Under the pieces are notes generated by a model, which worked only from the letters and a program-made list of their open reading frames with translations, searched no databases and was not told the DNA's origin. The translations under genes and the position numbers were made by a program. Positions 1 through 59,291 of a DNA stretch of 59,291 bases are shown here, one piece after another; position 1 is the first letter of the stretch; each line of letters starts with the position of its first letter. The stretch covers positions 1 to 59,291 of the IMG/VR virus record IMGVR_UViG_3300045996_001841. One strand, given 5' to 3'. This stretch comes from a virus.

Positions 1-127
1 GGCGGAATCAGCGCTTCGGCCGGCGCGCGGGGCGCGGTGAGCGCCTGTTTCAGGCTCTCGGACACCGGTGGCGGACCCGGGACCTGTTCGGTGCCCGCGG
101 CGACCTGTGCGACGAGCGCGGCCAGGG
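1..127. repeat. Left copy of 127-bp terminal direct repeat
   Basis: Bases 1-127 are identical to 59165-59291. This is the overlap expected when a circular or circularly permuted genome is written as a linear contig, and it falls inside the putative small terminase gene. The unique length is therefore 59,164 bp. A genuine packaged terminal repeat is possible, but a length equal to a common maximum assembly k-mer favours an assembly overlap. Confidence 0.95.
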
Positions 128-1330: not shown

Positions 1331-1631
1331 GCGGGCCTATGTGCTGCGCTGTCAGTGGGTTAGAGGGAAAGGAGCGGACTACCTTGAGGTAAGGGCCTCG
1401 AGCAGGTTTTCGCCAAGGTGCCTATTTCCTTAGGCGAAACACGCGCGATTTCCTTAGGAAAAACCCCTTGTGTCTGATAATGGCTGTTATGTTAACTTGA
1501 TTTGGCCTTTAGAATCAATGACTTAGGCCCGGTGTCCTGTTATGGGGACAGGCGCGTGGATTGGTCGAGGATTCTGGCGGGGTCCACGCGCGGTCCAGTG
1601 AAGCCGGATATATGAGCAAGCGCTCAGATGT

Positions 1632-1715
1632 CGATCCACGCTAATATACGAGGTGTGGATCGGGTAATCGCCTAGATTCCAAAAGACTTAACCCGTTTGA
1701 TCCATATGATCCATA
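1632..1715. repeat. GATCCAC/GATCCATA iteron-like cluster
   Basis: An inverted repeat CGATCCAC (1632-1639) / GTGGATCG (1655-1662) flanks an A+T-rich centre. It is followed by a perfect tandem 9-bp repeat TGATCCATA (1698-1706 and 1707-1715). Related GATCCAC sequence recurs at about 1854 and inside the hairpin at 4108-4137. Clusters of short iterons beside an A+T-rich stretch are typical of operators or replication origins. The function is inferred. Confidence 0.6.
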
Positions 1716-1917
1716 CTTTTTCTATTAATAGGAGCTATGTGTATTCCAGAACCCCGGGCCCGGAGCCCTGGACCTCGCTGGCAGCAACGATTTCATTTTT
1801 CCCGTTTATGTGTCACACACGACTTAAGTCCTTATCCCTCAATCACCTATCCCGATCCACACCCCACTTTTCCGTTCATAAATCCGGTCAAAGTGGATAG
1901 AACACGTAAAAGAACGC

Positions 1918-3246: not shown

Positions 3247-4095
3247 ATGTATACGCTGAATCGTTACCTCAAGGAAGCGCTAGACCACGGAACCCTGGAT
3301 TTTATGGGCCTGACGTTTGCCACCGACTACGCGGAACCTGGCTATACGGCCGGCGAAAAAGGCGTCGCGTTTGGCAACTGGAACGATCGAACGCGCTGGA
3401 ACCCTGAGACACAGCGATCGGAGCCTGTCAACGGGAAACTGGGCCCAAAAGGGTCCACAGTCCCCTCGAGGTTGGGCAAGGTCCTCGAGGCCGCGGGCTA
3501 TGAGATTGAATGGAGCGACGAATGGACCACGTGCGAGGACTGTAATCGCGCGATCCGCACGTCAGCGGATTCCTACGGATGGCGCGCGTCCTACGTGATG
3601 ATTGATGACTGCGCGATCGTGTGCGAGGACTGCGCAGTCAAAGATCCCGATACCCTGCTCGAGCAATACGTCAACGATCCGCATCGCGCGATGACCTTCG
3701 ATTTCGATTTCGAGGGGAACGGCTGGAAGAAATGGAACTCGGAGCGATTTGAAAACGGGTTTCACCCTGGACAGACGGACGATCCGCGCACGATTGCGAA
3801 AGAGGTTGAGGCGGACGGGTATCCGGAGTGGGTCTTCCATATTCCAGCCGTGGGGCAATTTGACATCCATTTCAACGTTTACGTGAAGGTCCGGCCAGCG
3901 CTCGAAGTGCTCGACCGCGCGATCGATCGCTTCGATCACACGGGTGAGGACCTGAACCTGGACCTGTATGGGGCGCGCGAAATCCTGGCAGCCTGCCGGG
4001 ATCATCTGGCCGGGTGCGATTACGTGAAGACCGATCGCCAACTACGCGCAGTGATCTCGGATCTGCTGTTGGACCTCGAGGCCGGCCGTCGCTGA
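3247..4095 (+). CDS. Hypothetical early protein with paired CxxC motifs
   Basis: A 282-residue protein, ribosome site AAAGGA before the ATG. Residues 1-80 are polar and mention no known motif. CEDC at about 96-99 and CEDC at about 126-129 form a likely zinc ribbon. The C-terminal third is helical and acidic (VLDRAIDRFDH). I recognise no family. Its final codons CGC TGA are already part of the conserved 65-nt hairpin element that follows, so its mRNA end and the element are linked. Confidence 0.8.
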   Translation: MYTLNRYLKEALDHGTLDFMGLTFATDYAEPGYTAGEKGVAFGNWNDRTRWNPETQRSEPVNGKLGPKGSTVPSRLGKVLEAAGYEIEWSDEWTTCEDCNRAIRTSADSYGWRASYVMIDDCAIVCEDCAVKDPDTLLEQYVNDPHRAMTFDFDFEGNGWKKWNSERFENGFHPGQTDDPRTIAKEVEADGYPEWVFHIPAVGQFDIHFNVYVKVRPALEVLDRAIDRFDHTGEDLNLDLYGAREILAACRDHLAGCDYVKTDRQLRAVISDLLLDLEAGRR

Positions 4096-4155
4096 AGTCC
4101 TTGCACACGATCCACAACCCCTCGGGGTTGTGGATCGAATGGAGGGATCAGCCCT
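4091..4155 (+). promoter_or_regulatory. Conserved hairpin element, copy 1
   Basis: A 65-nt element beginning inside the stop codon of the upstream gene. The flanks GCTGAAGTCCTTGCACA and ATGGAGGGATCAGCCCT are identical to copy 2 at 5058. Between them is a 30-nt inverted repeat (4108-4137) with a 14-bp stem and two central bases. The stem differs from copy 2 at several positions with both sides changed to keep pairing. There is no U-run, so this is not a standard terminator. It could be a processing, anti-termination or protein-binding RNA, or a DNA operator. Confidence 0.8.
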
Positions 4156-4178
4156 ACCACTGAAAGGAGCAATGCGCC

Positions 4179-4739
4179 ATGCGAACGCAACAAGATCACA
4201 AGGTCCGCGCGGTCAGCCTCGCCAACTTAGAGGCTATGTGCAATCGAGCCTCCGGCATGTGTCATCGGTTCTCCGTGTCCAAGGTGTCCCGATCGCGCGT
4301 GCACGTGGACTACTCGAACCCTGACGAATACGGGCACGAACGGCCGATTACCGCGGTCTTTCCCTGCATTCCAAACGATTTCGAGCCTGAGAACCCGATC
4401 GTCCTGATCGGCGCAATGCTGCGCACGATTGGCGGTGATGGTGATCCGGATTACGACTATCAGCAGTTCGATCCGATCGTCAGCGGGTCGGCGCTCTACC
4501 GCTCGAGGACAGACTGGCGGACCAGACAAGAGATCAGCGGCGATCGGTATCTCTGCCCCGATAACGTGGAGCGAACGGTCGATTGGAACCACTCTTACAC
4601 CGACGATCGGATGGCTGCCTTCAATGTGACGGCTGAAGTAAAGCCTCCGGATTATTGGGATCAGATTGGCGCGCGTCGCGTGTTTGTCTTCTTCCCCTGG
4701 TCGGATCTGACGCCCGTTCGCGCGGAGGTTCAATCATGA
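4179..4739 (+). CDS. Hypothetical early protein downstream of hairpin element 1
   Basis: A 186-residue protein. GAAAGGAGC precedes the ATG, directly after hairpin element 1. It is a mixed alpha/beta sequence with many aromatic residues (DPDYDYQQFDPIV, PPDYWDQ) and several Cys. No domain is recognised. It overlaps the next gene by ATGA. Because the element repeats before the second next gene, the proteins bracketed by the two copies (186 and 108 residues) may form a regulated unit. Confidence 0.78.
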   Translation: MRTQQDHKVRAVSLANLEAMCNRASGMCHRFSVSKVSRSRVHVDYSNPDEYGHERPITAVFPCIPNDFEPENPIVLIGAMLRTIGGDGDPDYDYQQFDPIVSGSALYRSRTDWRTRQEISGDRYLCPDNVERTVDWNHSYTDDRMAAFNVTAEVKPPDYWDQIGARRVFVFFPWSDLTPVRAEVQS

Positions 4740-5062
4740 CACCCCGCTTTTATCGCGCGGAGGGGCCTGTCCGATCGCTCCTGGTCCCGTGTCGGTTCGT
4801 CTGTTTTGCGAATCGTGAGATCACGACGGGGAAAGGCAAACGCACCAGGACGCGCGTGCAATGTGTCGCGTGGGAGGCCTGGAACCCCGATCCCACCCTC
4901 GAGGCCCACATGGCACGGCTGCCGGGATCGGGATCGTTCTACTGGTTGAATGCCATTCGCGTCCTGGTGGCGGCAAAGGCGGCAATGCGCGCCGATCCCA
5001 GCATTCACCAGATCAAGCTTGAAACGATTTCAGGACAGGAGATTGGCCGGTTGTATCGCTGA
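4736..5062 (+). CDS. Hypothetical early protein
   Basis: A 108-residue protein beginning MTPRFYRAEGPVRS. The start at 4736 is chosen over an upstream in-frame ATG because of the ATGA overlap and a GGAGG ribosome site 7 bases upstream. It is basic in its first half (GKGKRTRTRVQC). The second half is helical. No family is recognised. Its last codons (CGC TGA) again run into the conserved hairpin element, as for the 282-residue gene before copy 1. Confidence 0.75.
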   Translation: MTPRFYRAEGPVRSLLVPCRFVCFANREITTGKGKRTRTRVQCVAWEAWNPDPTLEAHMARLPGSGSFYWLNAIRVLVAAKAAMRADPSIHQIKLETISGQEIGRLYR

Positions 5063-5122
5063 AGTCCTTGCACACGACAGACGAGCCTCGAGGCTCGTCT
5101 GTCGAATGGAGGGATCAGCCCT
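5058..5122 (+). promoter_or_regulatory. Conserved hairpin element, copy 2
   Basis: Same length (65 nt), same flanks and same relation to an upstream CGC TGA stop as copy 1. The central 30 nt (5075-5104) are a perfect palindrome with CCTCGAGG at the centre. The stem differs from copy 1 at about six paired positions, all compensated. AAAGGAGC and an ATG follow at nearly the same distance as in copy 1. The stem also begins GACAG and ends CTGTC, the half-sites seen in the promoter 380 bp downstream. Confidence 0.8.
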
Positions 5123-5142
5123 TCGACACAAAGGAGCAGCAG

Positions 5143-5481
5143 ATGGCAAGCGAACACGAAAACCTGCACGAGTTCTACGCGGCCACGAAGGCACAGCAGC
5201 CGGCAGAGGCCTGCCGGATCGCCTACACGATCGAGCTGACTGCGGACGAATACCGCTCAGCCGAATACATGAGTGCTCGAGGGTATCTCGGCTGCGTCAC
5301 GGAGCACGCCACGGAAACCGAGGATCGGGACGATGGATCCGTGGTTCTCAAGTTCACGGAGTCCGATGCCTGGAACGTGCAGCAGGTGTGTGAAGACGAC
5401 GAGCACGCGGTGTGGAGCCTCACTACCCCGTCCACGTCCCTCGGACAGAAGTTCCAAGCGTTCCTCGATCAAATTGTCTGA
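5143..5481 (+). CDS. Hypothetical acidic early protein
   Basis: A 112-residue acidic protein beginning MASEHENLHEFYAATK. The start is chosen for its AAGGAG site 7 bases upstream. An upstream start at 5068 would lie inside the hairpin element. The sequence suggests a small alpha/beta fold (YTIELTADEYRSAEYM, then FTESDAWNV). No family is recognised. It is followed immediately by a consensus promoter, so it ends this transcription unit or is read through. Confidence 0.78.
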   Translation: MASEHENLHEFYAATKAQQPAEACRIAYTIELTADEYRSAEYMSARGYLGCVTEHATETEDRDDGSVVLKFTESDAWNVQQVCEDDEHAVWSLTTPSTSLGQKFQAFLDQIV

Positions 5482-5485
5482 GGGG

Positions 5486-5514
5486 TTGACAGAAAGCCTG
5501 TCGTTTGCTATATT
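5486..5514 (+). promoter_or_regulatory. Consensus sigma-70 promoter with overlapping inverted repeat
   Basis: TTGACA (5486-5491), a 17-bp spacer, TATATT (5509-5514), the same boxes and spacing as the promoter at 1918. An inverted repeat GACAG-AAAGC-CTGTC (5488-5502) begins in the -35 box, so a bound dimer would block the promoter. A start near 5521 leaves a leader of about 36 bases before the next ATG. Confidence 0.87.
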
Positions 5515-5556: not shown

Positions 5557-5868
5557 ATGGTTGAAACACTCCCCGTGATCTTTCGCGCTGGCAAGGAACA
5601 CGGCCAGATCTGGATTACGGCCGTCTTCCCCACATTGCAGGGGACCGATGATCGGAACACGTTCACGATCTACCAGCACATAGGGCAGCATGGGGCCGGC
5701 CGCTACGAGTGGTATCGCCGGACCCGGCCGGCGCGCCCCTCGGAGTATGCGGATTTGCTCAAGGAACTGCGCGGGATCTACGAAACGCCGGGACCAGGAG
5801 ACACGCCAGCGATCCGCCTCGAGGTTCGACAGCGCATGCACGCGAGTTACCGCCGACAGCGAAGCTGA
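5557..5868 (+). CDS. Hypothetical protein under its own promoter
   Basis: A 103-residue protein, MVETLPVIFRAGKEHG at the N-terminus, with AGGAGG before the ATG. The first half predicts beta strands (QIWITAVFPTLQG), the second is a basic helix. It is the first gene after the strong promoter at 5486. No family is recognised. Being separately and strongly promoted suggests an early host-takeover or regulatory role, which is inference only. Confidence 0.78.
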   Translation: MVETLPVIFRAGKEHGQIWITAVFPTLQGTDDRNTFTIYQHIGQHGAGRYEWYRRTRPARPSEYADLLKELRGIYETPGPGDTPAIRLEVRQRMHASYRRQRS

Positions 5869-5880
5869 AAGGAGGCCGAA

Positions 5881-5903
5881 ACCCTCGAGCAGTCCTCGAG
5901 GGT
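5881..5903 (+). promoter_or_regulatory. Intergenic hairpin with two CTCGAG arms
   Basis: ACCCTCGAG (5881-5889), loop CAGTC, CTCGAGGGT (5895-5903): a perfect 9-bp stem just after the stop at 5868. Each arm carries a CTCGAG. There is no U-run, so it is more likely an RNA structure or binding site than a terminator. Confidence 0.65.
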
Positions 5904-5937
5904 CCGCACGTGAAGCGTGCGCTGATGAGGCTACACA

Positions 5938-6063
5938 ATGAAAACAGGTTACACGCGACTCAGGAAACGTGACTGGTATGTGCAGGGTGGGTTCAGCAAT
6001 CCGCGCCTCTTTCGCCGGATGCGCGGCGGCGTGTGGCACTACTACCGGCTGACCTACTACTAG
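5938..6063 (+). CDS. Small basic aromatic protein (41 residues)
   Basis: A very basic, Tyr/Trp/Arg-rich peptide (MKTGYTRLRKRDWYVQG; HYYRLTYY at the end). TGAGG precedes the ATG at suitable distance. Its composition suggests nucleic-acid or membrane binding. No family is recognised. The short stretch after it (6064-6120) holds two small hairpins (GCCGG-CAGT-CCGGC and GCCC-GAAT-GGGC) before the next ATG. Confidence 0.6.
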   Translation: MKTGYTRLRKRDWYVQGGFSNPRLFRRMRGGVWHYYRLTYY

Positions 6064-58798: not shown

Positions 58799-59291
58799 CA
58801 CTCAGCCTCCACCGTTTCGACCTTGATCTGCGGCGTGCCCATTCCGGGTAGCATCACACCCACATTGACCTGCACGCCGGCGGGTCCGGCCTCCTTGACG
58901 ACCGGTTTCACGGCGCCACCGTGAATGAGCGCCCACTCCGCGGGCTTCGTATCACCCTCGGCCGCCGCCACTTTGGCGCCAATCAGGTGAATCTGCGCGT
59001 ATTCGTCCAGGTTCCGCTCGAGGCGGACCTTCGCGGCGCGCTTGATCTCAGCCAGCGTGCGGAGCGCCTGCACGTGATCGGCGCAGTAGACCGCCGATTC
59101 GGGGATCAGCACCATGCAGACCTGTTTCGACTCCGGATCGACGTGCCCGCAGCGCGCGGATCCAGGCGGAATCAGCGCTTCGGCCGGCGCGCGGGGCGCG
59201 GTGAGCGCCTGTTTCAGGCTCTCGGACACCGGTGGCGGACCCGGGACCTGTTCGGTGCCCGCGGCGACCTGTGCGACGAGCGCGGCCAGGG
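58798..59291 (-). CDS. Putative terminase small subunit, main part (5' end beyond window)
   Basis: The window ends inside this gene; the first codons are found at 1-149 through the terminal repeat (171 residues in total). CGHVDPESKQVC and YCADH (about 55-79) are a small zinc site. A basic helix (TLAEIKRAAKVRLERNLDEY) and a beta-rich end (GVQVNVGVMLPGMGTPQIKV) follow. Position before the large terminase and the helical DNA-binding-like middle suggest the small subunit, which recognises phage DNA. Sequence similarity alone does not prove it, and the zinc motif is not a usual feature of that family. Confidence 0.6.
   Translation of the reverse strand, partial: LAALVAQVAAGTEQVPGPPPVSESLKQALTAPRAPAEALIPPGSARCGHVDPESKQVCMVLIPESAVYCADHVQALRTLAEIKRAAKVRLERNLDEYAQIHLIGAKVAAAEGDTKPAEWALIHGGAVKPVVKEAGPAGVQVNVGVMLPGMGTPQIKVETVEAE
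59165..59291. repeat. Right copy of 127-bp terminal direct repeat
   Basis: Identical to 1-127. Joining the copies restores one uninterrupted gene (149 back through 1, then 59164 to 58798), which supports circular closure. Confidence 0.95.

What the first reader, a model, noticed from the sequence alone, without database searches (positions are those of the whole stretch)
4091..5122. Two 65-nt elements with identical flanks and a hairpin that has changed by compensation
Elements at 4091-4155 and 5058-5122 have the same length, identical left and right flanks, and both begin in a CGC TGA stop codon and end shortly before AAAGGAG and an ATG. The central 30-nt hairpins differ in sequence, yet both strands of the stem changed together at about six positions, leaving 14-15 bp stems. 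Selection therefore acts on the structure, not the stem sequence. I know no named phage RNA family with these flanks. It may be a riboregulator, a processing site, or an operator.
Basis: seen in the sequence. Interest (0 to 1): 0.85.

Follow-up and report, generated by a model that had tools for sequence, protein, structure and literature searches.

The report
Phage gene-junction hairpins, probable processing sites
Between some early genes this virus of bacteria carries a 65-letter RNA hairpin whose tip has been rewritten while still pairing perfectly; it looks like the virus's own version of the cut-and-trim signals that phage T7 uses to divide its messenger RNA, and unrelated phages carry their own versions.

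Summary
Two 65-nt elements (4091-4155, 5058-5122) have identical flanks and different 13-bp apical stems. Five of 13 pairs changed on both sides and none is broken. The whole element is one irregular hairpin: basal helix, 2-nt bulge, second helix, 1x1 and 2x2 internal loops, free apical stem. The upstream gene's stop codon lies in the basal helix, and the Shine-Dalgarno sequence starts 26 nt after the apical stem in both copies.

No close homologue was found in IMG/VR, INPHARED phages or GTDB genomes. Two other phage contigs (L026, L101) share the core RCACA[stem]RAUGG. Unrelated phages carry their own families (G002 7 copies, G006 4, G023 about 6), also with exchanged stems, each lying between a stop and a start codon. 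Covariation in G002 and G006 exceeds every control.

Phage T7's early RNase III sites, used as a yardstick, show the same traits: partly constant flanks, changed stems, similar stop and start spacing, and in R0.5 a stop codon in the basal helix. Best explanation: a phage-specific intercistronic mRNA-processing hairpin, cut by RNase III or a similar enzyme. Cleavage is untested. A probable hammerhead ribozyme lies at another junction 0.75 kb downstream.

The parts
4091..4155 (+). Element E1: 65-nt irregular hairpin between the 282-aa gene (3247-4095) and the 186-aa gene (4179-4739)
5058..5122 (+). Element E2: second copy, between the 108-aa gene (4736-5062) and the 112-aa gene (5143-5481)
4093..4095 (+). 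TGA stop codon of the 282-aa gene, in the 5' strand of the basal helix of E1
5060..5062 (+). TGA stop codon of the 108-aa gene, in the 5' strand of the basal helix of E2
4108..4137 (+). Variable apical stem-loop of E1 (13 bp + CTCG loop)
5075..5104 (+). Variable apical stem-loop of E2 (13 bp + TCGA loop)
4138..4152 (+). 3' strand of the lower helix of E1 (AATGGAGGGATCAGC); pairs with GCTGAAGTCCTTGCACA
5105..5119 (+). 3' strand of the lower helix of E2
4163..4169 (+). Shine-Dalgarno AAAGGAG of the 186-aa gene, first base 26 nt after the apical stem of E1
5130..5136 (+). Shine-Dalgarno AAAGGAG of the 112-aa gene, first base 26 nt after the apical stem of E2
3247..4095 (+). Upstream gene of E1 (phrog_35561, unknown function)
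4179..4739 (+). Downstream gene of E1, unknown function; overlaps the next gene by 4 nt (ATGA at 4736)
4736..5062 (+). Upstream gene of E2, unknown function
5143..5481 (+). Downstream gene of E2, unknown function
5874..5939 (+). Probable type II hammerhead ribozyme at another gene junction of the same early region (Rfam RF02276, 33.1 bits, below the gathering score of 37)

Best explanation
E1 and E2 are intercistronic mRNA-processing hairpins that work like the phage T7 RNase III sites, with a consensus private to this phage. In the early polycistronic transcript each forms a long irregular hairpin between the stop codon of one gene and the Shine-Dalgarno sequence of the next (shown by folding and covariation). 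A double-strand-specific endonuclease, most likely host RNase III, is inferred to cut in or beside the conserved internal-loop region. That would leave the upstream mRNA with a protective 3' hairpin and the downstream gene with a short leader and a free Shine-Dalgarno sequence. A shape-reading enzyme needs only a helix in the apical stem, so its sequence may drift or be rewritten, while the basal helix and internal loops, which would position the cut, stay fixed. Because the stop codon lies inside the basal helix, a ribosome finishing the upstream gene would open that helix, so processing may also be gated by translation (inferred). Shown: structure, strand preference in related families, position between stop and start, own families in unrelated phages, and the match to T7 sites in anatomy and spacing. 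Inferred: cleavage, the enzyme, the benefit.
For: Hairpin and flanks. Compensated stems. Other phages with their own families and exchanged stems. Covariation in G002 (16 of 19 pairs changed on both sides, 92.6% paired against 36-46% with partners slid) and G006 (12 of 20; 97.5% against 25-47%). RNA on the sense strand: 132 Watson-Crick, 12 G.U and 0 A.C pairs in the apical stems. Position: the real stop codon lies 10-17 nt before the apical stem in 11 of 11 irregular junction hairpins (9 distinct) against 55 of 128 other junction hairpins. T7 yardstick: the same detector picks out the early T7 hairpins at the known RNase III sites, with flanks AACTC[..]TATGAT shared by three and changed stems; R0.5 has the gene 0.4 stop codon in its basal helix; stop-to-stem 10 and 16 nt and stem-to-start 27-37 nt in T7, against 9-17 and 27-41 here. 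[quoted passage not shown] R1.1 is a 60-nt intercistronic RNA with an internal loop (PMC6121014). A probable hammerhead, itself an RNA-cutting element, sits at another junction of the same region.
Against: No cleavage data. T7 sites have an asymmetric internal loop and a partly conserved apical stem with a variable base; here the loops beside the apical stem are symmetric and the base is conserved. A perfect stem of 13 bp plus lower helices could equally serve as an insulator or a binding site. Only two copies in the window, and no close relative to test them against. The T7 site positions were assigned partly from memory, because the record carries no RNase III annotation.
Confidence: 0.5

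Rival explanations
1. Translational junction element: the hairpin acts on ribosomes, not nucleases. It either insulates the downstream gene from the terminating ribosome or links the two, because a ribosome at the buried stop codon opens the basal helix.
For: The stop codon lies in the basal helix in the window, G006, L026 and most G002 copies, and the start codon follows at nearly fixed distance. One G002 hairpin (29727) has its Shine-Dalgarno sequence inside the basal helix. Structure right after a stop codon lowers coupling, and coupling fades beyond about 20-38 nt (PMC12548453, PMC10666635), so the gaps of 56-83 nt here would uncouple genes.
Against: The Shine-Dalgarno sequence of E1/E2 is outside the hairpin. 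It does not explain why internal-loop sequences are kept exactly. T7 sites with the same spacing are known as cleavage sites.
Confidence: 0.23
2. RNA operator: a phage-specific RNA-binding protein recognises the conserved lower helix and internal loops of its own family and controls a set of early genes.
For: The lower helix is kept exactly within the window's pair but differs between phages, as expected for a co-evolving binder.
Against: No protein shared among the carrier phages suggests a regulator. It does not explain the long perfect apical stem with free sequence.
Confidence: 0.13
3. DNA-level element: a recombination or shuffling site (as with PeSL cassettes of T4-type phages or integron attC sites) or a protein-binding palindrome; the stems are rewritten by template switching at palindromes.
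For: Repeated hairpins at the 3' ends of small genes, constant outer part, variable tip; whole-stem rewriting fits template switching (inference).
Against: G.U pairs in the sense strand and no A.C in related families; no attC core (R'' RYYYAAC / R' GTTRRRY) in the element; no consensus promoter match at E1 or E2; fixed spacing to the start codon.
Confidence: 0.08
4. Self-cleaving ribozyme of a new class, doing at E1/E2 what the hammerhead does at 5874-5939.
For: A probable hammerhead lies at another junction of the same early region; fixed internal-loop sequences with free stems are typical of small ribozymes (general knowledge).
Against: The core is a plain hairpin with few unpaired bases; no Rfam match; internal loops differ between phages.
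Confidence: 0.06

Closest known systems
Phage T7 early RNase III processing sites (R0.3, R0.5, R1, R1.1, R1.3)
   Same: Repeated hairpins between early genes; flanks shared by some copies with changed stems; internal loop between basal and apical helix; stop codon 10-16 nt before and start codon 27-37 nt after the stem in several; stop codon inside the basal helix in R0.5.
   Different: T7 keeps the apical AAGGUC/GGCCUU and an asymmetric loop and varies the base; here the base and symmetric loops are kept and the apical stem varies. Cleavage shown for T7, not here. No sequence similarity found.
SAS/ESAS repeats of cluster K mycobacteriophages (TM4)
   Same: Short repeats in intergenic gaps just upstream of start codons; ESAS has inverted arms around a variable centre (PMC3203893).
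   Different: ESAS arms are constant and do not covary, and the authors argue against RNA hairpins; TM4 folds agree. The window has no SAS beyond chance.
PeSL cassettes of T4-type phages
   Same: Intergenic stem-loops repeated among small early genes.
   Different: PeSLs combine an early promoter with a terminator (titles cited in PMC4503421); E1/E2 have no consensus promoter match and no T-run.
Integron attC sites (from memory)
   Same: Hairpin with conserved outer part and variable tip at gene 3' ends.
   Different: No R/L core boxes; pairing evidence favours RNA on the sense strand.
Hammerhead ribozyme type II (RF02276)
   Same: Occupies the same kind of gene junction 0.75 kb downstream.
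   Different: E1/E2 lack its core and do not match any Rfam family.

Membership tests
T7-type intercistronic RNase III site | Hairpin with a long stem and internal loop(s) lying between genes of an early transcript | tested here: met
   it lies between co-oriented small genes. That the transcript is early is inferred, not measured
T7-type intercistronic RNase III site | Repeated in the genome with shared flanks and changed stems (T7 yardstick) | tested here: met
T7-type intercistronic RNase III site | Stop and start codon spacing in or near the T7 range | tested here: met
   (window 15 and 38-41 nt; T7 10-16 and 27-37 nt, with R1.3 at 27 nt from its stop)
T7-type intercistronic RNase III site | Asymmetric internal loop next to the apical stem | tested here: not met
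   2x2 and 1x1 symmetric loops; the asymmetry is a 2-nt bulge lower down. The element is therefore not filed as a member, only as working like one
T7-type intercistronic RNase III site | Cleaved by RNase III | not testable with these tools
   needs RNA ends or enzyme assay
SAS/ESAS | 13-bp GGGATAGGAGCCC at the start codon | tested here: not met
SAS/ESAS | Constant inverted arms without covariation | tested here: not met
   here the apical arms covary
PeSL | Promoter plus terminator-like stem-loop | tested here: not met
   no promoter match or T-run at E1/E2
Known Rfam RNA families | Covariance-model match | tested here: not met
Intrinsic terminator | GC hairpin followed by a run of T | tested here: not met
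   no T-run after E1/E2

The most novel reading that the evidence does not exclude
Probability: 0.25. Interest if true: 0.75.

Novelty: new variant of a known kind. Interest (0 to 1): 0.5.

Why it matters
It suggests that T7-style intercistronic hairpins are a recurring solution in phages far from T7, each phage keeping its own version. The stop codon in the basal helix, present even in T7 R0.5, is a feature I have not seen described and makes a link between translation termination and mRNA processing directly testable. The families also give a simple way to find such sites in uncultured phages: constant flanks with exchanged stems between a stop and a start codon.

Tried and rejected
Exact flank patterns in viral contigs and genomes: nothing, apart from a tRNA 3' end and chance matches. 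blastn of the element in phages: chance matches only. Terminase as a bait for relatives: none. Covariance model R1 from two copies: only the elements themselves, their near-palindromic reverse strand, and a weak L009 hit (23 bits, E 0.008) that looks like a GATC palindrome before a start codon; none in 22 related records, and as the tool notes such an empty answer shows little. Marine-like contigs L127/L154/L156/L159 matched the core pattern, but in L127 and L159 the neighbouring ORF runs on the other strand, so I dropped the group as homologues. A bistable switch was considered (UCCUU pairing with the Shine-Dalgarno sequence; GGG-loop-CCC alternative hairpin): E2 can adopt the first fold, and GGG..CCC is present in window, L026, L101 and the first six G002 copies, but it is absent from G006 and the seventh G002 copy, so I do not build on it. 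Shared regulator among carrier phages: none found.

Full report
WHAT IS THERE. The window is a complete-looking virus record (59,291 bases, 127-base terminal repeat) encoding a terminase, a major head protein, a DNA polymerase, a helicase and a primase. The two elements lie in a + strand run of small genes of unknown function. E1 (4091-4155) separates a 282-aa gene from a 186-aa gene; E2 (5058-5122) separates a 108-aa gene from a 112-aa gene. The alignment shows three invariant blocks: GCTGAAGTCCTTGCACACGA, TCGAATGGAGGGATCAGCCCT, and AAAGGAGCA after a 7-base linker that differs between the copies. The apical arms differ at five positions, each changed on both sides. For two aligned 13-bp arms, the chance that the changed sites coincide and are complementary is about 1/1287 x 1/243.

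STRUCTURE. Both copies fold identically: GCUGA/UCAGC, a 2-nt AG bulge, UCCUU/AGGGA, a G.G mismatch, CA/UG, a CA x AA internal loop, then the 13-bp variable stem with a 4-nt loop (z about -7 to -8, no shuffle as stable). The upstream stop codon UGA is paired with UCA in the basal helix.

RELATIVES. Exact flanks are absent from 2.9 million viral contigs, from the phage collection and from 85,000 bacterial and archaeal genomes. Phages carrying homologues of two neighbouring proteins were scanned for pairs of hairpins with alike flanks but unlike stems. G002 (the phage of L005) has seven: six and a seventh (28602) whose basal helix is wholly different yet again contains the real stop codon, GC-UAG-UU. 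G006 (the phage of L009) has four. L026 has two copies with the same stem. A pattern scan found L101, whose phage G023 also holds about six junction hairpins of yet another type. Window, L026 and L101 share the core RCACA[stem]RAUGG (1x1 R.G, CA/UG, 2x2 CA x RA). This descriptor with a basal helix gives 11 hits (5 distinct elements) in 2.1 Mb and none in shuffled sequence; note that L101 was found by a pattern containing that core, whereas L026 was not. G002 and G006 have different internal loops, all small and mostly symmetric. The carrier phages share almost no proteins and no candidate regulator.

EVIDENCE THAT RNA STRUCTURE IS SELECTED. In G002, 16 of 19 pairs show changes on both sides and 92.6% of cells pair, against 36-46% when partners are slid; in G006 12 of 20 and 97.5% against 25-47%. 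With only five and four sequences, and a structure derived from them, these are strong but not independent tests. Across all apical stems there are 132 Watson-Crick, 12 G.U and no A.C pairs on the mRNA-sense strand. The stems were defined by a detector that accepts G.U, but it was run on both strands, and the G002 and G006 families appeared in the sense of the genes. E1 and E2 themselves are all Watson-Crick and do not discriminate strand. At gene junctions in 2.5 Mb, irregular-helix hairpins have the true stop codon 10-17 nt before the apical stem in 11 of 11 cases (9 distinct), against 55 of 128 for other junction hairpins. The start codon follows 27-33 nt after the stem in G002 and 38-41 nt in the window and L026.

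YARDSTICK. The same hairpin detector, run on the T7 early region, picks out hairpins at the positions I recall for the RNase III sites R0.3, R0.5, R1, R1.1 and R1.3. R0.3, R0.5 and R1.1 share flanks AACTC and TATGAT or close variants, with stems changed. R0.5 folds with the gene 0.4 stop codon inside its basal helix. Stop-to-stem (10 and 16 nt) and stem-to-start (27-37 nt) distances match those of the new families. [quoted passage not shown] The record in the collection does not annotate the sites, so their identity rests on position and memory.

MECHANISM. I commit to a processing hairpin that works like the T7 sites (0.5). It explains three things together: an apical stem that must pair but may have any sequence (a double-strand-specific enzyme reads shape), fixed internal-loop sequences (placement of the cut), and the position just after a stop and just before a Shine-Dalgarno sequence. 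The probable hammerhead at another junction of the same region (5874-5939; core CUGAUGA, GAAAC and the expected stems; 33.1 bits against a gathering score of 37) suggests that cutting the transcript at junctions is useful to this phage. It is not filed as a member of the T7 kind: the internal loops beside the apical stem are symmetric rather than asymmetric, the conserved and variable halves are exchanged, and cleavage is untested. A purely translational role is the main rival (0.23). Published coupling experiments show that gaps beyond about 20-38 nt nearly abolish termination-reinitiation, and that structure right after a stop codon lowers coupling (PMC10666635, PMC12548453), so at 80-83 nt these elements would separate rather than couple their genes unless the fold brings them together.

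WHY THE STEMS DIFFER. Not settled. Either repeated compensation, or one-step rewriting by template switching at a palindrome, followed by selection. Reduced homology between copies would lower deletion of the genes between them; this is inference only.

LIMITS. Conclusions about the class rest on other phages with different consensus sequences.

Noticed in passing
window 5874-5939 +: Probable type II hammerhead ribozyme between the gene ending at 5868 and an ORF starting at 5938; Rfam RF02276 33.1 bits, E 0.0069 over the whole window, just under the curated cut-off.
   Followed up: partly
window 5486-5514 +: Strong sigma-70-like promoter TTGACA-17-TATATT with TG before the -10 (11 of 12), directly after the gene that E2 precedes.
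   Followed up: no
window 1627-1900: Non-coding-looking stretch with GATCCAC/GTGGATC inverted copies (about 1635, 1655, 1851); the same letters recur in the arm of E1's stem (CGATCCACAACCCC), possibly chance because GATC is common here.
   Followed up: no
window 1-127 and 59165-59291: 127-base direct terminal repeat: the record is probably a complete genome.
   Followed up: no
G023 (L195/L196) 28034, 28400, 28972, 30078, 31526: Family of junction elements UGA-N5-[exchanged 9-10 bp hairpin]-TATTWGGCA-loop-TGCCA-SD-ATG in one 38.7-kb phage contig; a second constant hairpin follows the variable one.
   Followed up: partly
G002 28602 and 29727 (reverse-strand coordinates): 28602: seventh member, with a wholly changed basal helix that again carries the stop codon. 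29727: hairpin whose basal helix contains the Shine-Dalgarno sequence GGAGG.
   Followed up: partly
L127, L154, L156, L159: Conserved hairpin AATCACACAAGGCAAACACCAG..CTGGTG..TGCACAATGGGATT in four contigs, not in Rfam; in L127 and L159 it follows a gene on the opposite strand.
   Followed up: partly
G009 42623 and 43471 (reverse-strand coordinates): Pair of junction-like hairpins GGCCGAA/GACCGAA[hairpin]..GTGACTGCC with exchanged stems and a second covarying hairpin behind.
   Followed up: no
L194 (phage T7) record positions 1425-1481: In T7 RNase III site R0.5 the gene 0.4 stop codon is inside the basal helix; I know no comment on this.
   Followed up: partly
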